Assembly (NCBI GenBank): GCA_902613855.1
Contig: CACMIX010000002.1
Coordinates: 123,998-187,997, forward strand
Direction: 5' to 3'
From: an uncultured Pelagibacteraceae bacterium
Lineage (GTDB): Bacteria > Pseudomonadota > Alphaproteobacteria > Pelagibacterales > Pelagibacteraceae
DNA length: 64,000 nucleotides
The translations under genes were made by a program, and so were the position numbers. This document shows, in pieces, positions 54,836-64,000 of this stretch. Within the stretch, counting starts at the first letter, position 1, and each line of letters begins with the position of its first letter. Under the pieces are notes generated by a model. It was not told the origin of the DNA. It was given only the letters and a program-made list of their open reading frames with translations, and did no database searches.

Positions 54836-54891
54836 TTTAAGTCAACATCATTCCAGCTAATAGAAAAGCTAGTTCAATAGCAATTATGGCT

Positions 54892-55497
54892 TCAAGCATT
54901 TTTAAACTCGAACAGTTTTAATGATATAAAATCTCGTCTAGATATTTTCTTTTTTAATTTTGGTATTCTAACTTTTAAAGATCGAATAAACTTTAAATAT
55001 TCAAATAATCTTAGAGTAGAAACAGTCTTTCTTACAACTGCAGCAATACATAAGCCTACTAAAAAACTAAGCAATGAAATACCCATTGCTTTAACTGTTA
55101 AAGCAAATGCACTCACACTTGCACCTCCTTTAATAATACCCCATTTAAGATTTCTCATTTCTTGTTTATTAGTTGATTGATTATATCGATAAGCGAGGAC
55201 CACTATAGAGGTTATAGTTCCAATTGGATCACCATGAACAAAGCTAGAGGCTAAAGCCCCAGATGCTATTTCAGAAAATTCTTCTTTATGTCTTTTCTTC
55301 CAATTAAAAAATAATGCAAGTGGACCTATAGAACCTGCAAGCAGTTCATTAAATTCTACGTGCTTGATGTCCTCAACCCATTTTTGAGGCACTTTAATTG
55401 CCTCATTGAATTGATCATAAATTATTGTGTATGATTTTGAGTAAGTTGAGTGAACTAAGCTGGATAATATATTTAGACTGTAAAAGCTTTTATTCAT
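54892..55497 (-). CDS. Hypothetical membrane-associated protein
   Basis: 201-aa ORF with hydrophobic segment ALTVKAMGISLLSFLVGLCIAAVV; divergent from 55533. Confidence 0.5.
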   Translation of the reverse strand: MNKSFYSLNILSSLVHSTYSKSYTIIYDQFNEAIKVPQKWVEDIKHVEFNELLAGSIGPLALFFNWKKRHKEEFSEIASGALASSFVHGDPIGTITSIVVLAYRYNQSTNKQEMRNLKWGIIKGGASVSAFALTVKAMGISLLSFLVGLCIAAVVRKTVSTLRLFEYLKFIRSLKVRIPKLKKKISRRDFISLKLFEFKNA

Positions 55498-55532
55498 AAA
55501 GTGTTAATATATAAATAGATTGAAGCATAAAA

Positions 55533-57428
55533 ATGTCAAACACAGAAAGATTATTTCCAATAGGAATATTGGAAAAAAGTAAGAGTAAAGAGCTAATACC
55601 TAATTTTGAAAAAGGAGAGTTTTATTTAGCAGATTACTTAAATAAAAAATTACCTAAAGAATGGAATATTTATACACGTCCTGAGTTAAAAGCTCGCTGG
55701 GGTTCAAATCAAAATAAAAAAACACCAGACATAGTAATTGCACATCCCCAAGAAGGTATAATGATATTTGAAGTTAAAAATTGGAATATTTCAAACTTTT
55801 TTGTAGATGAGATAAGAACAAAAAACGCAAAACCAAGATTAGATATTTATCAAAAAAGTTTAAATGAAAAAACTGGCCAAACAAGAAGATCCGGAAATTT
55901 AAATCCTATTGAACAAGCAGAAGGATATCTATGGAGAATGAGAAATAGTATTCATGAAATTTTAGAGGAAATATATGAAAATAACAATAAAAGACACTTA
56001 ATTCATTGTGGGGTCTATTTTCATAATCCACATTCAACTGAGGAAGCAAGAAAATTTGTAAGATTTGAAAACTACGTCAATCCAGATAGATGCTCTGTTT
56101 TTGCTAAAGATTATTTAGATCAGGATGTAGAAATAGATAAAATTGTTCCATTAATTAATAATAAATTTAAAATCAAATCTAATAAAAATTGGATAAATTT
56201 ATTTTCCAACTGGATATCACCACCATTACACAGGCAAGAAAAACAATTTAGAACATCAATTAATGATTTAGATAATAATCAAAAAAAATTTGTTGAATCT
56301 AAACCAAATGTAATTCAAAAAATTTCAGGAGTAGCTGGTAGTGGCAAGACAACAATAGCAGCTTTAAGAGCTGCGATATCTGCCAGTAACAAAAAAAAAG
56401 TACTTGTTTTGTGCTACAATATTACAATAAAAAATTTTTTAATTGATGAAGTAAACAAAACAATTTACCCCCAAAATGAGTTAATTGATTTTTTTCATTT
56501 CCATGATTTTTGTAAAGCATATAGAGAAAATAATAATATTACTTATCAAACAGAAATTTTAAGTGAAGAGAGTGATGATAATTCTATCGAGGAAATCAAA
56601 AAACACAAAAATCAAAATAAAGATAATTCAATTAATTACGATGTAATAATCATTGATGAGGGACAAGATTTTAAAAAAAATTGGTATGAATTAATTAAAA
56701 ATTTTTTAAAACCAAATGGGGAAATTTTAATTGCTCTAGATCAAAAGCAAAATATTTATAATAGAGAAAAAAAAACATCACTGAAGGGTATTGGTGGAGG
56801 TCGGTGGGGTATACTTAAAAAAAGCTATAGATTATTAAATCCACACATAGAGCTTGCAAATAAATTTTCTGAAAAATTTTTTCTTGATGTAAATGAAGAA
56901 AATGAAGATCCAAAAATAGAATTAGACAAAAATAATCAATTTAAATTACCATTCAAAGCAGAACCAGCTTCCTTCTGGCTAAATATTTTGAATGATAATG
57001 ATCTAAATGACAGTGTTGTTGGAATACTTAAAGATTTATTTGATAAAAAAGTAAGCCCTTCTGATATTGCAATTTTAGTTACTAATCATGAGCAAGGGCG
57101 AGCATTAAAGCAAGTCATTCTTGAAAATTATGAAAATATAAAAATCATGGATATTTTTGAAAAATTAGATGTAAGACAGAGACAGCAAAAAATTTTATTT
57201 AAAGTTCATAGTGATAAATTGAAAATGGCAACTATTGCAAGTTTTAAGGGCTGGGATAGAAGAAATATTATAATAATTACAGACAAAACATCTAATATAG
57301 AAAAAAATAATGCAAGAATGGATTTTGAGTTTTACACATCTATAACTAGAGTTAGAGAAAAAGTTTTCGTTTTAAATCGTAATAAGCGATATGAAGACTT
57401 TTTAGATGATAATTTTGAGATATATTGA
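55533..57428 (+). CDS. NERD-domain nuclease-like protein fused to a UvrD/SF1-like helicase
   Basis: N-terminal TPDIVIAHPQEGIMIFEVKNW (NERD-like D...ExK), GVAGSGKTTIAALRA Walker A, VIIIDEGQDF Walker B, FEFYTSITRVREKVFVL. Confidence 0.85.
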   Translation: MSNTERLFPIGILEKSKSKELIPNFEKGEFYLADYLNKKLPKEWNIYTRPELKARWGSNQNKKTPDIVIAHPQEGIMIFEVKNWNISNFFVDEIRTKNAKPRLDIYQKSLNEKTGQTRRSGNLNPIEQAEGYLWRMRNSIHEILEEIYENNNKRHLIHCGVYFHNPHSTEEARKFVRFENYVNPDRCSVFAKDYLDQDVEIDKIVPLINNKFKIKSNKNWINLFSNWISPPLHRQEKQFRTSINDLDNNQKKFVESKPNVIQKISGVAGSGKTTIAALRAAISASNKKKVLVLCYNITIKNFLIDEVNKTIYPQNELIDFFHFHDFCKAYRENNNITYQTEILSEESDDNSIEEIKKHKNQNKDNSINYDVIIIDEGQDFKKNWYELIKNFLKPNGEILIALDQKQNIYNREKKTSLKGIGGGRWGILKKSYRLLNPHIELANKFSEKFFLDVNEENEDPKIELDKNNQFKLPFKAEPASFWLNILNDNDLNDSVVGILKDLFDKKVSPSDIAILVTNHEQGRALKQVILENYENIKIMDIFEKLDVRQRQQKILFKVHSDKLKMATIASFKGWDRRNIIIITDKTSNIEKNNARMDFEFYTSITRVREKVFVLNRNKRYEDFLDDNFEIY

Positions 57429-57504
57429 TGATAGATAAAATAAACTATCTATTATATTAAGAAATAGATTTCATAAAACAAAATTATAATAAAGAAAGGA
57501 TATT

Positions 57505-57708
57505 ATGGCATCTTATATTGAACATTCACTTGTAGTTTTATCTTCTGTAATTAAAAGAAAATACAATGATGATAATTTGTATAATATTATTAGAAAATTA
57601 GCATCTACATGTACAGATGCAGGCTTTCCAGGAGAAGATGGATTTGGAGGTAATCATAAATCTAATAAAGTTATAGCTGAAATTACCAAGGAAATAGAAA
57701 AATTATAA
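57505..57708 (+). CDS. Small protein of unknown function upstream of the methyltransferase
   Basis: 67-aa ORF MASYIEHSLVVLSSVIKRKYNDDNLYNIIRKLASTCTDAGFPGEDGFGGNHKSNK... Confidence 0.5.
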   Translation: MASYIEHSLVVLSSVIKRKYNDDNLYNIIRKLASTCTDAGFPGEDGFGGNHKSNKVIAEITKEIEKL

Positions 57709-57718
57709 AAATATTTTA

Positions 57719-58561
57719 ATGAAAAAATTTGAAATTTTAAATTTAGATAGATTAGAATTTTTAAAAAAAATTGAGAAAAATAAGGTTCAGTTGATCATTA
57801 CATCGCCACCATATAACATTGGTAAAGACTATGAAAAGAAACTACCTTTTAAAAAATACCTTGAAGAGCAAAAAAAAACTTTAAAAGAATGTTACAGAGT
57901 TTTGTCAAATAAAGGCAGTCTATGTTGGCAAGTAGGAAGTAGTTTTGAAGATAATGTGTTGATTCCCTTAGACATTTATATTTACAATATTTGTAAAAGC
58001 TTGGGTTTTAAACTTAGAAATAGAATAATATGGCACTTTGAGCACGGCCTACATTCTTATAAAAAATTTTCAGGAAGATATGAAACTATATTGTGGTTTA
58101 CAAAAAGTGATAACTATTATTTTGATTTTGATGAAATTAGAATCCCACAAAAATATCCAGGCAAATTAGGTTATAAAGGAAAAAATAAAGGAAAATATAC
58201 AGGACACAAAATGGGAAAAAACCCATCTGATGTATGGATATTTCCTAATGTAAAAAGTAATCACAAAGAAAAAACAATACACCCATGTCAGTTTCCAATA
58301 GAACTTGCTGAAAGATTAATTTTGTCAATGAGTAAGAAGAATGATCTAGTTATTGATCCATATGCTGGTGTTGGTACTACTTTGCTAGCAGCTGTAAAAA
58401 ATAATAGACTATCCAAAGGTTCGGACATCATGAAAAAATACACAGATATTGCTAATAAAAGATTTAAATTACTTATTAAAGGAAAACTTCCCTACAGAGA
58501 TAGAAATCAAGCAATTCAAAAAGTTAAGGGAAATTCTAAATTATATTTTAGGGATGATTAG
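57719..58561 (+). CDS. DNA methyltransferase (beta-class N4-cytosine/N6-adenine type)
   Basis: Motif IV LIITSPPYNIGKDYEK near the N-terminus and motif I VIDPYAGVGTTLLAA near the C-terminus; KTIHPCQFPIELAERLI. Confidence 0.92.
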   Translation: MKKFEILNLDRLEFLKKIEKNKVQLIITSPPYNIGKDYEKKLPFKKYLEEQKKTLKECYRVLSNKGSLCWQVGSSFEDNVLIPLDIYIYNICKSLGFKLRNRIIWHFEHGLHSYKKFSGRYETILWFTKSDNYYFDFDEIRIPQKYPGKLGYKGKNKGKYTGHKMGKNPSDVWIFPNVKSNHKEKTIHPCQFPIELAERLILSMSKKNDLVIDPYAGVGTTLLAAVKNNRLSKGSDIMKKYTDIANKRFKLLIKGKLPYRDRNQAIQKVKGNSKLYFRDD

Positions 58562-59388
58562 TTTGTTTTAACTGAATAATTAATTTTAATACTTTCCCAC
58601 TGTTCGCCTTCATTACTTATTTCTTGAAATCTTAAAACTCTCAACTTTAATTCCTTATATTCAATTATTATAGGTTTTGGGTCTTCTTGTATCCAAAGAT
58701 GAATAAAATAATTAGTTTTTTCTGAAGAAGCACATTTCCATTCGTTTTTAGTTAAAAAGAAAATACCTCTTTTATCTTTAGAGGATTTAGCTTCAATAAA
58801 AATATTATTTTTATACTTATCAAAAGATTTTATATCGTAACCTAATTTATTATCCCAAAAACCATCCCAAGTTGGTTTTAAATTAATTTTTAAATTTTTT
58901 AATTTTTTTTTTTCAAATTCTAAACTTTTTTTTTCTCCACTTCTACCAGACTCAATTTTTTTTTTATCAATAAGCGATCTAGCAAAATCGATTAAATCAT
59001 CCCACCAATTAATTATTTCATCATCTGGATCATCCTCTGAAATAGATGTTAAATTTGCATAATCTAGTATTTGATTAAAATCTCCACTTAATCTTTCAAA
59101 AAAATGTGTTGGCCCATAAGGTAATGCTAAGAGAGAGTTTGGCTTATTTTTTTTAAAAAATTTACAAATTATTTCTCTTAAAATTTTTTGTTTGTTCTTC
59201 TCATCATTTTCTTTTTTATAATCTTGAAATATTTCTTTTCCTAGATTGTCGCACAATAATTTACCAGAGAGGTAATCAACTGATGAAAAATAGTAATCAT
59301 TAAAATTTTTTGGTTCATTTACGATTTGTGTGTTTTCAGATATAAAAATTGCAGCATCAAAAGAACTTTTAGTAATATCACTTATCAT
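58558..59388 (-). CDS. DUF3883-like protein with predicted PD-(D/E)xK-type nuclease C-terminus
   Basis: LGYDIKSFDKYKNNIFIEAKSSKDKRGIFFLTKNEWKCA resembles DUF3883 (GxDI...ExK). Confidence 0.7.
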   Translation of the reverse strand: MISDITKSSFDAAIFISENTQIVNEPKNFNDYYFSSVDYLSGKLLCDNLGKEIFQDYKKENDEKNKQKILREIICKFFKKNKPNSLLALPYGPTHFFERLSGDFNQILDYANLTSISEDDPDDEIINWWDDLIDFARSLIDKKKIESGRSGEKKSLEFEKKKLKNLKINLKPTWDGFWDNKLGYDIKSFDKYKNNIFIEAKSSKDKRGIFFLTKNEWKCASSEKTNYFIHLWIQEDPKPIIIEYKELKLRVLRFQEISNEGEQWESIKINYSVKTN

Positions 59389-61259
59389 TAAGATTTGATC
59401 AAATCTTCCATCATAGATTTTATATCTTCAAGTGTAATATTCTCATCTATTGGCATTAATCCCTCGGTCTCATCAAGAGCCATTTTTATTAAATTTGGAT
59501 CGTTCAATAGTTGCCCCATATAATCAATTTTACGCTCAAGATTAGATTTAATTGCAAATTCTATATTTCTTAAATTTTGAGGAATGGCACTCTGTAAAAT
59601 ATAAATATTTTTTTGATCATTGTTTCCCAATCTACAAATCCTATCAATGGATTGAAGATATAAATCGGCCTGAAAGCTTCTATCTAAATATATTGCATCG
59701 TGACAAACATGGTGAAGACTTATTCCTTCGGCACATGAAGCATAATTTGCAACAAGAACTTTACAATCTGAGTTCTTATCTTTAAATTTTTTTATATTAT
59801 ATTTTCTTGTATTTTCTTCTTCTTCAGAACCAGTTTCTACTCCTCCATGGATATAAACAGCGTTTAAATCTTTAAGATAATATTTTCCAATATGTTCAAT
59901 ATTGTTTCTAAAATAACTCCATATAACTGTTTTTTTTCCTTCTTTAGCAAGACTTCTGGCTTTATCACATGCCCATTTTATTTTTGGAGATCCTCCAGAA
60001 TTTTCTTCCTCTTGAAGCTGAAGATGTATTTTACTTGCCATATCATCACCAAAATAAAATTCTCCATTTTCGATCATTCTATGTGTTAGCAGAATAGGAT
60101 TACTGGATATCATGATCAGTCTTACGATTGATTTTCTTACATCCCTTAAATTCTCTTTGTTAATTTTATTAACATTTCCATATTTATGTAAAAACTTTGT
60201 CATCACAGAAGCGTACAACTCTAGTTGGGGCTTAGACATTTCAACATTTGTAGGAATTATATTTGGATCAGGTAAATTTAATTGTTTTTTTGTAGTCCTT
60301 ACCCAAAATTTTTTTTCAGGATCACCCCCAAAAGGAAAAAGAAATTTAAATTGTGTATTTTTATCCTCAGGTTTGTTTGGAACTGGTGTTCCTGTAAGAA
60401 TATCTTTTCTCACAAATGGTAGGGTAGATATTTCTTTTGCTGCATTAGATCTCTCAGCACCTTCAGTTTTTATTTTATGACTTTCATCTAAAACTACATG
60501 AACATTATTATTGGGATCATATACAAAATTTGAAATCAACCCTGTTACATTAATCAATTTTTCATAATTAATAATAAAATTTCTATTTTGTGAAAAAAGC
60601 AATTTTTCCTTTATTTGATCGTAAGAGCCTTTCAGTTCAGTGATTCCTTCTTTTCTTAACTGACAATCTTCAGTGAGCGAGTCTTCAAGTCCTTCTTCCC
60701 ATGCTAAAAAAGCATTTTTTGGACTTACAACAAATAAGCTATTAGCTTTAAAATTTTCATTTTGTCTTAATAGCAAATGAATAGCTATCGTTACTGCAGT
60801 TTTTCCTGATCCCTGTACAGAAAAGTTTGCCCCATGTCTTTTTTTAAGTAAATTACTTATGTTTTCAATTTGGTAGTCTTTTAAATCAAGTTTAAAGCCT
60901 AATTTGCTTAAATCTTTGATTTCAGCATTTTTAATTTTATATTTACTATCTTCCTCTAAAGGATCTCCAGATTTAATTAAATCTGTAACAAATTTTTTAC
61001 TTTCCTCAGTATAATTTACATTAAAATTATAGGTTTTTTTATAATCACTTAGCACATTTAGAAATTGCAAGTAAGCTGTCCATTGAACTAATATACTGTT
61101 TTCTGTTTCCTCTTCAAAGTCTGAGCCTTGATATTGTCTCAAAGACTCACTCATTTGTCCCCATGCACTTTTATGAGTTTTCTTGAAATTTTTAGATAAT
61201 GAAATTTTACAAACAGGTATTTTATTTATTTTAGTTAATGAAATATTTAGAGATTCCAA
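59388..61259 (-). CDS. SNF2-family (SF2) helicase/translocase
   Basis: SVQGSGKTAVTIAIHLLL, VHVVLDESHKIK (DESH), DILTGTPVPN, SIDRICRLGNNDQKNIYIL. Confidence 0.9.
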   Translation of the reverse strand: MESLNISLTKINKIPVCKISLSKNFKKTHKSAWGQMSESLRQYQGSDFEEETENSILVQWTAYLQFLNVLSDYKKTYNFNVNYTEESKKFVTDLIKSGDPLEEDSKYKIKNAEIKDLSKLGFKLDLKDYQIENISNLLKKRHGANFSVQGSGKTAVTIAIHLLLRQNENFKANSLFVVSPKNAFLAWEEGLEDSLTEDCQLRKEGITELKGSYDQIKEKLLFSQNRNFIINYEKLINVTGLISNFVYDPNNNVHVVLDESHKIKTEGAERSNAAKEISTLPFVRKDILTGTPVPNKPEDKNTQFKFLFPFGGDPEKKFWVRTTKKQLNLPDPNIIPTNVEMSKPQLELYASVMTKFLHKYGNVNKINKENLRDVRKSIVRLIMISSNPILLTHRMIENGEFYFGDDMASKIHLQLQEEENSGGSPKIKWACDKARSLAKEGKKTVIWSYFRNNIEHIGKYYLKDLNAVYIHGGVETGSEEEENTRKYNIKKFKDKNSDCKVLVANYASCAEGISLHHVCHDAIYLDRSFQADLYLQSIDRICRLGNNDQKNIYILQSAIPQNLRNIEFAIKSNLERKIDYMGQLLNDPNLIKMALDETEGLMPIDENITLEDIKSMMEDLIKS

Positions 61260-61261
61260 AA

Positions 61262-62578
61262 TTATTTTTCTAATTTATTAACTATTCTTTCAGTTTTTTT
61301 TACAACTTTTTTTAGATTACTAAGAATTGAACCTCTATCACTTGGAGGCAATGATGCAGATTCTAACTTAGTAATTTTAAGCAAAATATCGTTAGATGCT
61401 CTTAGCGCTGCTGCATCTTCTTTTTTAAAATTTAATTCTTCCCTTATTTCATTTATTAACTCAGGTTTAATTTTTTTTGTTGGAATTTTTTGAATAACAC
61501 TCAATTCATATTGAGAAGGGATTTTGCCAGCTATGATATCTTCTGGATTATCTGAAATATTTTTTTCTTCTTTACTTGGCTTTAAATGAAATCTAGCCTT
61601 AAGATAATCATAAACATCTTTTAGGTTTTTTCTATTTTGAAAATCTATGCAAAATTCATATGCTCGTTTTCCTAAGTTACGGGAATTTAAAGAAACTATT
61701 CTTGCTATTTTAAATATTAGCTCTCTTTCAATTGCATCTTTTGTTTTATATGCTTTTTTTCTTGTTTCTTCCCAAATTTGTTGCTGATTCATAATCAAAT
61801 CATAATGTCTAGGTTTTCCGTAATCTTCCTCTAGACATTTATCAATTTCCTCAATCAATTTATAAGACGATTCTACCCAGTCTTGAGTTTTATCCATCGT
61901 AACAGATATCCATTTAAAATCTTTTTTTAGAACATCTTTTTGTCTTTGAATTTTTTTAATTAAAGATATCCAATCATAATCTTGTTTTAATTCTTTTTTG
62001 ATCTGATAATAGCTTTCTGTTACCTCTATATCTTCTGCAGTAAGATGTTCTTGAATAACTGCTGCAGGGATGTATTGAAATTTCTCAAATTTTTTTTTAT
62101 TAGATTCATAAAGTTCTCTTACTGATGATAATCTTCTATTGCCATTAATTACCATTCCTTTAATATCAACAAGGATAGGTTGATCTTCTCTAAATTCTGC
62201 TCTTTTTTTTAATTCATCAAATATATTTTGTTTATGTGAACCATAACCCATTGCCTGATTAATTAAGAGTGTATGTTGAATTTTTTGTTGGTTATTATTT
62301 TCCAGATTATTCGAGAAAAAATTTTCCGGTTTGTTATTGTTGTATATCCACTCGCTCTGCATAGATTGAGTTCTTCCGTTGTTTAAATGATAAATTGGTA
62401 AATCAATGGGTAAATTGACTATAGGACATTTTTTAAACCTTCCTTTTATATAAAATTCACTTTCATGTTTATGCTCACTTTTTTTCCACTTAGTAATATG
62501 AGCTCTAATACTTTTTTCTCTGATGTCTTGCTGCTGAACTTTTACTTTATATTTGAATTGTAGATCTTCTCTAATCAT
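61262..62578 (-). CDS. ParB-like nuclease/CTPase-fold domain protein
   Basis: QPILVDIKGMVINGNRRLSSVRELYES resembles ParB box II (GERRxRA-like); AAVIQEHLTAEDIEV. Confidence 0.7.
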   Translation of the reverse strand: MIREDLQFKYKVKVQQQDIREKSIRAHITKWKKSEHKHESEFYIKGRFKKCPIVNLPIDLPIYHLNNGRTQSMQSEWIYNNNKPENFFSNNLENNNQQKIQHTLLINQAMGYGSHKQNIFDELKKRAEFREDQPILVDIKGMVINGNRRLSSVRELYESNKKKFEKFQYIPAAVIQEHLTAEDIEVTESYYQIKKELKQDYDWISLIKKIQRQKDVLKKDFKWISVTMDKTQDWVESSYKLIEEIDKCLEEDYGKPRHYDLIMNQQQIWEETRKKAYKTKDAIERELIFKIARIVSLNSRNLGKRAYEFCIDFQNRKNLKDVYDYLKARFHLKPSKEEKNISDNPEDIIAGKIPSQYELSVIQKIPTKKIKPELINEIREELNFKKEDAAALRASNDILLKITKLESASLPPSDRGSILSNLKKVVKKTERIVNKLEK

Positions 62579-62618
62579 AATTATATTTTCATATTATTGA
62601 GATATTTTAATATAAATT

Positions 62619-64000
62619 TCAATTAATTTTGTAATTTTCACTTAGTTGTCTTCTTAAATCCATTATTTCTAGCATACTAATTCCTATATTTTTTGGCATT
62701 TTGCTATAGTTTTCATTAATATTTAAATTCATATCGTAGGAATTTTTAATTTTTTCATTTAATTCTTCAGGATCAAACCTTTCTTTTGACAAATATTTTT
62801 TTTTGAATATCCAATTATTTTCTTTAGATATAATTTTAACCAGCGTGTCATAGTAAAAATTGGAATTCTCATAATCAAATTCTTGATTAAGATTTTCTCT
62901 AATATAACTTATTGTTATATATTTAAAATTTTCTAATAAATTTTTTATATAATTAATAACTTTTTCTTTATCACAACTTTTAAGAGCTTCTTTCAAATTT
63001 AAATAAGAGCCAGGATTAATTTTGAATATTTGAGCTTCTTCAACTAGTTCATCCAAATGTATCTCTAGAGGTAATTGTTCTGTAGTTTTTTGCAATTCAT
63101 TGTTAAGATAATCGGTAGTAATTTCAAAATTGTTTTTTTCAATAATATTTTTTATTTTAATCTTTAAGGGAATAACTTTTATATTTTTATTTAATCCAAT
63201 TGTGTTTGTACCTGATCTTCCAAGGTGATAAAGGCCTTTTTCTTTACCAAATATTTTAATTATAGCTCTCAAGTTATAAAAATTTAAATTGTCAAACTCA
63301 CCTGTTTCTAAAATTTTTTTATAAATATGTTCAAGGTCACTTTGTTCTAAATTTAACTCTTTTAATATTTCAATTGTTTTTGATATTAGATGTTCTCTAT
63401 TTTTAATTTCTAACAATAGGTATTTAATTAATCTATGTTTTCCTTTATCTATTAGATAAATATTTGGATTATATTCCATTGAAAAGGATGTGTCATAAAC
63501 TTCCCTAGTTTCATCCCAAATATTATTTGAGAAGGAATTATTTCCTATTTTTCTAACCTCTTTCCAATGCAATCCATCCGGATAATCTAACAAAATATGT
63601 GAAACTTCCTCATATTTTTTCATCTTAATTGGATAAACTTTATTTTCATGAATTTTAATTAATTCTTTTTCACTCATAAAATTTAATGCAGCTTTAGATG
63701 TAAATTCATCGTATCCAAAACCATCACTTATTACTTTGATAAAAGTTTCAATATCTTTTCCAGATGGTGTGTATAAAAAAATTTCTTTTAATCGTACTAA
63801 ATTAAATTTTTTAAGTTCTCTCTCTGGAGTAGAAAAATAATTTTTATCAACTCCACAATAATTTTCGATAAACTCAGTAAGCTTATCATTGGTGATATCA
63901 TTAACTCCTATTGCAGTATCAGTAAAAAATTTATCTAAAGTAGGAAATAATTTATGAAAACTAATTGATTTATACTTGGTGAAATAATCTATTAAAGAAT
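62619..64000 (-). CDS. Large protein with possible repeated HTH-like modules, N-terminus beyond the right edge
   Basis: Frame is open from 62619 to the window end (my reading adds SLIDYFTKYKSISFHKLFPTLDKFF...LNF upstream of the track ATG at 63677); contains LLDYPDGLHWKEVRKIG and KIFGKEKGLYHLGRSGT. Confidence 0.6.
   Translation of the reverse strand, partial: SLIDYFTKYKSISFHKLFPTLDKFFTDTAIGVNDITNDKLTEFIENYCGVDKNYFSTPERELKKFNLVRLKEIFLYTPSGKDIETFIKVISDGFGYDEFTSKAALNFMSEKELIKIHENKVYPIKMKKYEEVSHILLDYPDGLHWKEVRKIGNNSFSNNIWDETREVYDTSFSMEYNPNIYLIDKGKHRLIKYLLLEIKNREHLISKTIEILKELNLEQSDLEHIYKKILETGEFDNLNFYNLRAIIKIFGKEKGLYHLGRSGTNTIGLNKNIKVIPLKIKIKNIIEKNNFEITTDYLNNELQKTTEQLPLEIHLDELVEEAQIFKINPGSYLNLKEALKSCDKEKVINYIKNLLENFKYITISYIRENLNQEFDYENSNFYYDTLVKIISKENNWIFKKKYLSKERFDPEELNEKIKNSYDMNLNINENYSKMPKNIGISMLEIMDLRRQLSENYKIN

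What the first reader, a model, noticed from the sequence alone, without database searches (positions are those of the whole stretch)
57505..64000. Candidate undescribed defence locus: HTH-like / ParB-like / SNF2 / DUF3883-nuclease operon convergent with a DNA methyltransferase
Four minus-strand genes sit almost end to end (62619-64000+, 61262-62578, 59388-61259, 58558-59388) and encode an HTH-like protein, a ParB-fold protein (INGNRRLSSVRE), an SNF2 translocase (GSGKT, DESHK, QSIDRICRLG) and a predicted PD-(D/E)xK DUF3883 nuclease (GYDIKS..EAKSS). They meet a beta-class DNA methyltransferase (TSPPYN...DPYAGVGTT) tail to tail. Methyltransferase, translocase and nuclease together suggest self/non-self discrimination. 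No specificity subunit, DUF1998, PglX/Z, PLD or UvrD partner is visible, so I cannot match it to type I-III R-M, DISARM, BREX, Druantia or Zorya from memory. The ParB-like component is the unusual part. Domain calls are from motifs; defence function is inference.
Basis: partly seen in the sequence, partly recalled or inferred. Interest (0 to 1): 0.85.

Follow-up and report, generated by a model that had tools for sequence, protein, structure and literature searches.

The report
Motor-driven restriction system using dead enzymes
This bacterial gene cluster looks like an undescribed kind of restriction-modification immune system: a DNA-tagging enzyme marks the cell's own DNA, and a separate motor-plus-cutter machine attacks unmarked DNA, in related copies apparently guided by ordinary restriction enzymes that have lost the ability to cut.

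Summary
One correction: gene A is cut by the contig end, so it cannot be read further. The four minus-strand genes form a tight operon: A (HTH-like), B (ParB-like), C (SNF2), D (DUF3883 nuclease). It meets a BglII/BstYI-type methyltransferase (M) tail to tail.

B-C-D is a real, conserved, mobile module. Thirteen of 14 loci found with B also carry C, and 12 carry D. Eleven weak ParB control hits carry neither. PADLOC names no system for it. D keeps its D..ExK residues in 14 of 14 copies. In seven other loci a methyltransferase of the same class sits directly beside B-C-D, in different gene orders.

The new finding came from relatives. Where a type II restriction-enzyme homologue accompanies the ParB-SNF2 pair, it has lost its catalytic residues or domain while standalone relatives keep them. 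This happened in three unrelated families: BglII-like, a C5-methyltransferase-linked family, and Sau3AI. The cutter is then DUF3883, or a PLD domain fused to SNF2.

Best reading: an ATP-dependent restriction-modification system with a recognition subunit (often a dead restriction enzyme), a ParB clamp, an SNF2 motor and a separate nuclease. The window's own recognition subunit is uncertain. No function was tested.

The parts
57719..58561 (+). M: beta-class DNA methyltransferase (SPPY ... DPYAGVGT); closest plasmid relatives are partners of BglII/BstYI-family restriction enzymes
   Evidence: Pfam N6_N4_Mtase 8.5e-57; 50-53% identity to MTases next to BglII/BstYI REases in Spirosoma, Sphingobium, Acinetobacter; motifs checked
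58558..59388 (-). D: DUF3883/NOV_C PD-(D/E)xK nuclease, D185, E199, K201 of the protein
   Evidence: Pfam NOV_C 3.2e-13; D..ExK plus upstream G and E invariant in 14/14 family members
59388..61259 (-). C: SNF2-family ATPase (motifs GSGKT, DESH, TGTP, QSIDRICRLG)
   Evidence: Pfam SNF2 2.3e-15, Helicase_C 3.7e-8; motifs kept in 16/16 homologues
61262..62578 (-). B: ParB-like protein (INGNRR motif, followed by HTH-like region)
   Evidence: family profile matches ParB/Spo0J structures, E 7e-4; family-specific profile separates module loci from ordinary ParB
62619..63998 (-). A: C-terminal part of a large HTH-type protein, 5' end beyond the contig; proposed recognition subunit
   Evidence: tblastn to E. 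coli/Salmonella IncHI1 plasmid 'sigma factor-like HTH' protein, 5e-13; pairwise E 2e-22 over aa 464-796 of 816; same operon position as the dead REases in relatives
57456..57456 (.). left edge of the swapped cassette: DNA identity to a sibling genome ends here
   Evidence: 93% identity to G1116 over window 54849-57456, none beyond

Best explanation
An ATP-dependent, multi-subunit restriction-modification system. M methylates a specific, probably short palindromic site and so marks the cell's own DNA. A recognition subunit encoded upstream of B binds the unmethylated site: a catalytically dead type II restriction enzyme in several relatives, probably the HTH protein A in the window. B, a ParB-like clamp, loads at or near that site and couples it to C, an SNF2 motor that moves or remodels DNA. 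D, the DUF3883 nuclease, cuts the unmarked invading DNA. Shown by sequence: gene content, operon structure, conservation of M, C and D catalytic residues, loss of catalytic residues in the associated restriction-enzyme homologues. Inferred: site recognition, clamp loading, translocation, cleavage, phage defence.
For: (1) Conserved module: loci found by B alone carry C in 13/14 and D in 12/14, against 0/11 of weak ParB hits. (2) A beta-class MTase abuts B-C-D in eight loci including the window, with several gene orders: M-B-C-D (G056, G704), M-REase-B-C-D (Paracoccus, G444, G684), B-C-D-M (G566, G712), convergent (window); in G712 it is a distant family. (3) Four further plasmids (REase-like A-B-C-D) carry one C5-MTase family, 57-73% identical to each other. 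(4) Dead enzymes: BglII-like A' lost D and E (EVQ to QLQ) against 3/3 standalone enzymes that keep them; the C5-linked family lost D and E (HDY..IELK to TVY..IIQK) in 4/4 against 6/6 standalone that keep them; Sau3AI homologues in two ParB-SNF2 loci keep only the C-terminal half, without the N-terminal ExK-bearing half. (5) A nuclease is supplied elsewhere: DUF3883 with intact residues 14/14, PLD fused to SNF2 (HxK seen), or type III Res. (6) The cassette is swapped for another R-M system in a sibling genome.
Against: No functional data. In the window itself no dead restriction enzyme is present; A is truncated, its informative homology is to one plasmid protein that is not beside B-C, and no homologue was found in 240 class-mate genomes. 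G056, G704 and G566 show no recognition subunit beside B, so recognition could lie in B or M. In type III loci the Res protein already has a motor and nuclease, so ParB-SNF2 may do something other than translocate for cutting. M proteins paired with B-C-D do not form one clade, so partnership is loose. The DUF3883 model was useless (pLDDT 38.7) and the ParB model did not finish.
Confidence: 0.62

Rival explanations
1. Two neighbours, not one system: M is a solitary or type II methyltransferase, and A-B-C-D is a separate defence or DNA-maintenance module that only shares the defence island.
For: In the window M is on the other strand; M relatives also live with BglII-type REases or other genes; the Streptomyces locus shows no MTase in the annotated neighbourhood; MTase class varies between loci.
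Against: A beta-class MTase abuts B-C-D in eight loci in several orders, and all four C5-type loci carry one MTase family that elsewhere partners the live version of the same REase.
Confidence: 0.15
2. The dead restriction enzymes are decoys or regulators: they occupy sites to temper a live restriction enzyme, or sense it, and B-C-D repairs or processes the DNA rather than restricting.
For: Rhizobium carries both a live REase and the dead copy with B-C-D; three loci also carry Vsr repair endonucleases nearby.
Against: In Kozakia the live enzyme is split into two reading frames while A-B-C-D is intact; no live BglII-type enzyme was seen beside the module in Paracoccus or G684; D is an intact nuclease in all.
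Confidence: 0.1
3. A modification-dependent (type IV-like) or anti-competitor system: the recognition subunit binds methylated or foreign-modified sites.
For: Enterococcus lactis has A-B-C next to McrBC genes; ParB-like and SNF2 parts occur in DNA-modification systems such as Dpd (from memory).
Against: A cognate-family MTase co-resident with A-B-C-D would then direct attack on its own genome.
Confidence: 0.08
4. Plasmid or chromosome partition accessory (true ParB function).
For: B is ParB-like and several loci are on plasmids.
Against: The family profile separates it from ordinary ParB loci, which carry no C or D; the window copy is on a 188-kb contig of a 1.2-Mb genome, inside a cassette swapped for an R-M system; no ParA partner in the operon.
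Confidence: 0.03

Closest known systems
Type I / III / ISP ATP-dependent R-M
   Same: methylation as self mark, SF2-family motor, PD-(D/E)xK-type nuclease, separate recognition function
   Different: no HsdS or Mod-Res here; recognition appears to come from type II enzymes that lost catalysis, or an HTH protein; an extra ParB-like component; motor and nuclease are separate genes
MORC / paraMORC R-M operons (Iyer, Abhiman and Aravind 2008, PMC2292703)
   Same: SNF2-family helicase with DNA methylases, Vsr and restriction-fold nucleases; also laterally mobile
   Different: defined by GHKL ATPases; a search of that text for ParB found none. The sibling genome has a GHKL-ATPase/helicase/C5-MTase cassette of this general type at the same place
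SNF2-DUF3883 fusions in R-M operons of the Ava_2192 HEPN group (Anantharaman 2013, PMC3710099)
   Same: DUF3883 already proposed there as a restriction-endonuclease domain working with SNF2
   Different: no ParB-like partner and no dead type II enzyme described in the passages read
Type II R-M of the BglII/BstYI family
   Same: the methyltransferase family, and in Paracoccus, G444 and G684 the REase family (PF09195)
   Different: the REase homologue lacks its catalytic D and E and is about 40-50 residues shorter; cutting is reassigned
PADLOC candidate PDC-S36, PD-T4-1, TmtA
   Same: share the NOV_C nuclease domain
   Different: match limited largely to that domain; no B or A counterpart

Membership tests
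Restriction-modification in general | DNA methyltransferase linked to a nuclease | tested here: met
   beta-class MTase abutting B-C-D in eight loci; C5 MTase on the same plasmid in four more
Restriction-modification in general | methylation protects against cleavage | not testable with these tools
   needs bench work
Type II R-M (BglII/BstYI) | catalytically competent cognate REase beside the MTase | tested here: not met
   none beside M in the window; the homologue in Paracoccus, G444, G684 has lost D and E
Type I R-M | HsdS specificity subunit and HsdM | tested here: not met
   no such Pfam, NCBIfam or PADLOC hit in the five genes
Type III R-M | Mod plus Res subunits | tested here: not met
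   absent in the window; but the B-C pair rides on Mod-Res in Lactococcus and E. faecium plasmids
MORC R-M | GHKL (MORC) ATPase in the operon | tested here: not met
   none in the window operon; only a divergent neighbour in G566
DISARM, BREX, Zorya, Druantia, Dpd | their signature genes other than a generic SNF2 helicase | tested here: not met
   PADLOC: only C matches, through the SNF2 domain
ParB/Srx superfamily (B) | ParB N-terminal domain similarity with GxRR-type motif | tested here: met
   profile hit to Spo0J/ParB structures E 7e-4; GNRR in 14 of 16 aligned copies, variants (NANRR, GNTR) in two
DUF3883/NOV_C nuclease (D) | D..ExK active-site residues | tested here: met
   14/14

The most novel reading that the evidence does not exclude
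An undescribed class of R-M in which type II restriction enzymes were converted, at least three times independently, into non-cutting specificity subunits of a shared ParB-SNF2 motor that works with exchangeable nucleases (DUF3883, PLD, type III Res).
Probability: 0.55. Interest if true: 0.9.

Novelty: new variant of a known kind. Interest (0 to 1): 0.82.

Why it matters
If right, it shows how ordinary cut-at-site type II enzymes can be turned into the recognition part of a motor-driven restriction machine, which bears on the open question of how type I- and III-like systems arose. It gives ParB-like proteins a proposed role in immunity and predicts DNA specificity for each locus from the MTase beside it, so the model is directly testable. 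It also explains a set of 'hypothetical' genes next to R-M systems on plasmids of Alphaproteobacteria, Lactobacillales and Bacillales.

Tried and rejected
Two scans of the GTDB contig collection with single proteins found no relative, probably because the family is too divergent for exact peptide patterns; whole-genome and plasmid searches worked. Phage records hold no B relative. The AlphaFold model of D from one sequence was too poor to use (pLDDT 38.7); the model of B did not finish; no fold search was run. NERD-UvrD helicase (55533-57428; PADLOC NERD+UvrD 2.1e-62) was considered as a sixth component and rejected: a sibling genome has it at 93% DNA identity without the module. I first thought M was not part of the system, because the four C5-type plasmids lack it; the Paracoccus, G056, G566, G684, G704 and G712 loci reversed that. 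An attempt to show that window A and the Enterococcus A proteins are full-length homologues failed: only the sigma-region-4 HTH is shared between the profiles. Literature searches for ParB + SNF2 + R-M, DUF3883, dead REase homologues and type III + ParB + SNF2 found no description of this module, but that library lacks most subscription journals and all bioRxiv preprints.

Full report
Observation. The five genes are real and lie where stated. The operon is tight: B and C are 2 nt apart, C and D overlap in TAATG, and D and M overlap by their stop codons. The window ends where its contig ends (C2, 187,997 bases, in a 1.21-Mb assembly), so gene A is incomplete for technical reasons.

Domains. M is a beta-class methyltransferase, C an SNF2 ATPase, D a NOV_C/DUF3883 protein. 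B is a diverged ParB: Pfam gives only E 1e-3, but a ten-sequence profile finds ParB and Spo0J structures at 7e-4. A has no useful Pfam match; its one informative homologue is a large 'sigma factor-like HTH' protein on E. coli and Salmonella IncHI1 plasmids. PADLOC names no system.

The module is conserved. Searching plasmids with B alone returned five alphaproteobacterial plasmids, and all five have upstream gene - ParB - SNF2 - DUF3883 in this order. Genome searches added more. Using profiles on all reading frames, loci found by B carry C in 13 of 14 cases and D in 12 of 14; one of the two without D ends at a contig edge. Eleven weak ParB hits from the same searches serve as a control: none has C or D nearby. 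B is rare: 14 of 386 sampled genomes of the class had any hit, about half of them strong.

The methyltransferase belongs to it. Its closest plasmid relatives partner BglII/BstYI-family restriction enzymes. A beta-class MTase also abuts B-C-D in Paracoccus, G444, G684, G704, G056, G566 and G712, either before or after the other genes; in G712 it is a more distant family. The window's convergent arrangement is one more order. The MTases paired with B-C-D do not form one clade, so the module has probably changed partners.

Dead restriction enzymes. In Paracoccus, G444 and G684 a 154-aa gene between M and B matches PF09195 (Endonuc-BglII), at 1.5e-5 and 9.6e-7 for the two copies scanned. Against three standalone enzymes of the family it has lost the catalytic D and E (D..EVQ becomes ..QLQ) (G444 checked). 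In the four plasmids Azospirillum, Rhizobium, Mesorhizobium and Kozakia the upstream gene belongs to one family, whose Azospirillum copy matches a PADLOC type II REase model (1.4e-18). Standalone relatives of it lie directly after a C5 methyltransferase. All six of those, including a second copy inside the Rhizobium locus, keep D and (E/D)xK; all four module copies have V and IxK, while other invariant positions are shared. The C5 methyltransferases of the four loci belong to the same family as those of the standalone pairs (57-74% identity). In Kozakia the live copy is split in two frames while the dead one is intact with B-C-D. A third family appeared late: in Priestia and Lactiplantibacillus the SNF2 protein carries an N-terminal PLD nuclease domain (Pfam in Priestia; HxK motif seen in Priestia and in Lactiplantibacillus), ParB lies upstream, and a Sau3AI homologue lies beside it. 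It aligns only with the C-terminal half of a standalone Sau3AI enzyme and lacks the N-terminal half with the PDFPEAGVELK motif. That the C-terminal half of Sau3AI is the non-cutting effector domain is from memory of its published structure.

Nuclease supply. D keeps its active-site residues in 14 of 14 copies and C its motifs in 16 of 16. In Priestia, where the PLD domain is fused to SNF2, no D was found. In Lactococcus lactis and Enterococcus faecium the ParB-SNF2 pair overlaps the end of a type III Mod-Res operon, again without D, Res carrying its own endonuclease domain. This fits one active nuclease per locus, but is a pattern seen in few loci, not a law.

Mechanism. The simplest reading is division of labour: M marks self; a recognition protein finds unmarked sites; the ParB-like protein acts as a loading clamp; SNF2 supplies motion; D cuts. 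The dead enzymes are the strongest argument, because three unrelated families lost catalysis in the same gene context. In the window the recognition role most likely falls to A, which has the same operon position and an HTH relative; the Priestia Sau3AI-like protein also matches, in its C-terminal half, an Enterococcus casseliflavus 'sigma factor-like HTH' protein, which hints that the two kinds of recognition subunit share a part. This is inference. Loci without any such gene (G056, G704, G566) leave room for recognition by B or M.

Mobility. A sibling genome (G1116) is 93% identical up to window position 57456, just past the NERD-UvrD helicase, and then carries a GHKL-like ATPase, a large helicase-like protein and two C5 methyltransferases instead. 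That cassette resembles the MORC R-M operons of Iyer and colleagues 2008, by inspection of sequence only. The site is therefore a likely defence exchange point, and NERD-UvrD is flank.

Known or new. Pieces are known: DUF3883 as a REase domain fused to SNF2 (PMC3710099), SNF2 in MORC R-M operons (PMC2292703). I found no description of ParB-SNF2-DUF3883, nor of dead type II enzymes as its companions, within the limits of the library. It works like an ATP-dependent R-M system, but fails the defining tests of types I, II and III, so I file it as a new variant of R-M.

Noticed in passing
L094:3374-6497, L097:3374-6497, L093:4338-7503: ParB-SNF2 pair overlapping the 3' end of type III Mod-Res operons in Lactococcus, Enterococcus faecium and (probably) Lactiplantibacillus plasmids; no separate nuclease. 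Why a type III system would need a second motor is unexplained.
   Followed up: partly
window 55533-57428: NERD-UvrD helicase (PADLOC NERD+UvrD, 2.1e-62), probably a defence gene of its own and conserved in a sibling genome.
   Followed up: partly
L092:4382-12097: Sibling genome carries a GHKL-like ATPase, a large helicase-like protein and two C5 methyltransferases at the place where the window has M-D-C-B-A.
   Followed up: partly
L041:8612-15082: E. coli/Salmonella IncHI1 plasmids: 816-aa sigma-like HTH protein (relative of window A), then an AAA_13-type ATPase and a DUF4145 protein; possibly the same recognition part with another effector.
   Followed up: no
L026:1924-7599 and L027:1956-10664: Enterococcus plasmids (SNF2 hits in about 51 records): large sigma-like HTH protein - ParB - SNF2; in E. 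lactis followed by McrB/McrC-like genes, in E. faecalis by transposase reading frames.
   Followed up: partly
L014:13070-14017: IS481 transposase gene sits between SNF2 and DUF3883 in the Mesorhizobium plasmid, so that copy of D may be uncoupled or truncated.
   Followed up: no
L016:6460-8028 (G160): The one strong B homologue without C or D, in an ordinary-looking neighbourhood.
   Followed up: no
L073:7062-8327 and L074:6280-7650: Weak ParB hits that also match the beta-class MTase profile: apparent ParB-methyltransferase fusions, overlapping or abutting a second MTase reading frame.
   Followed up: no
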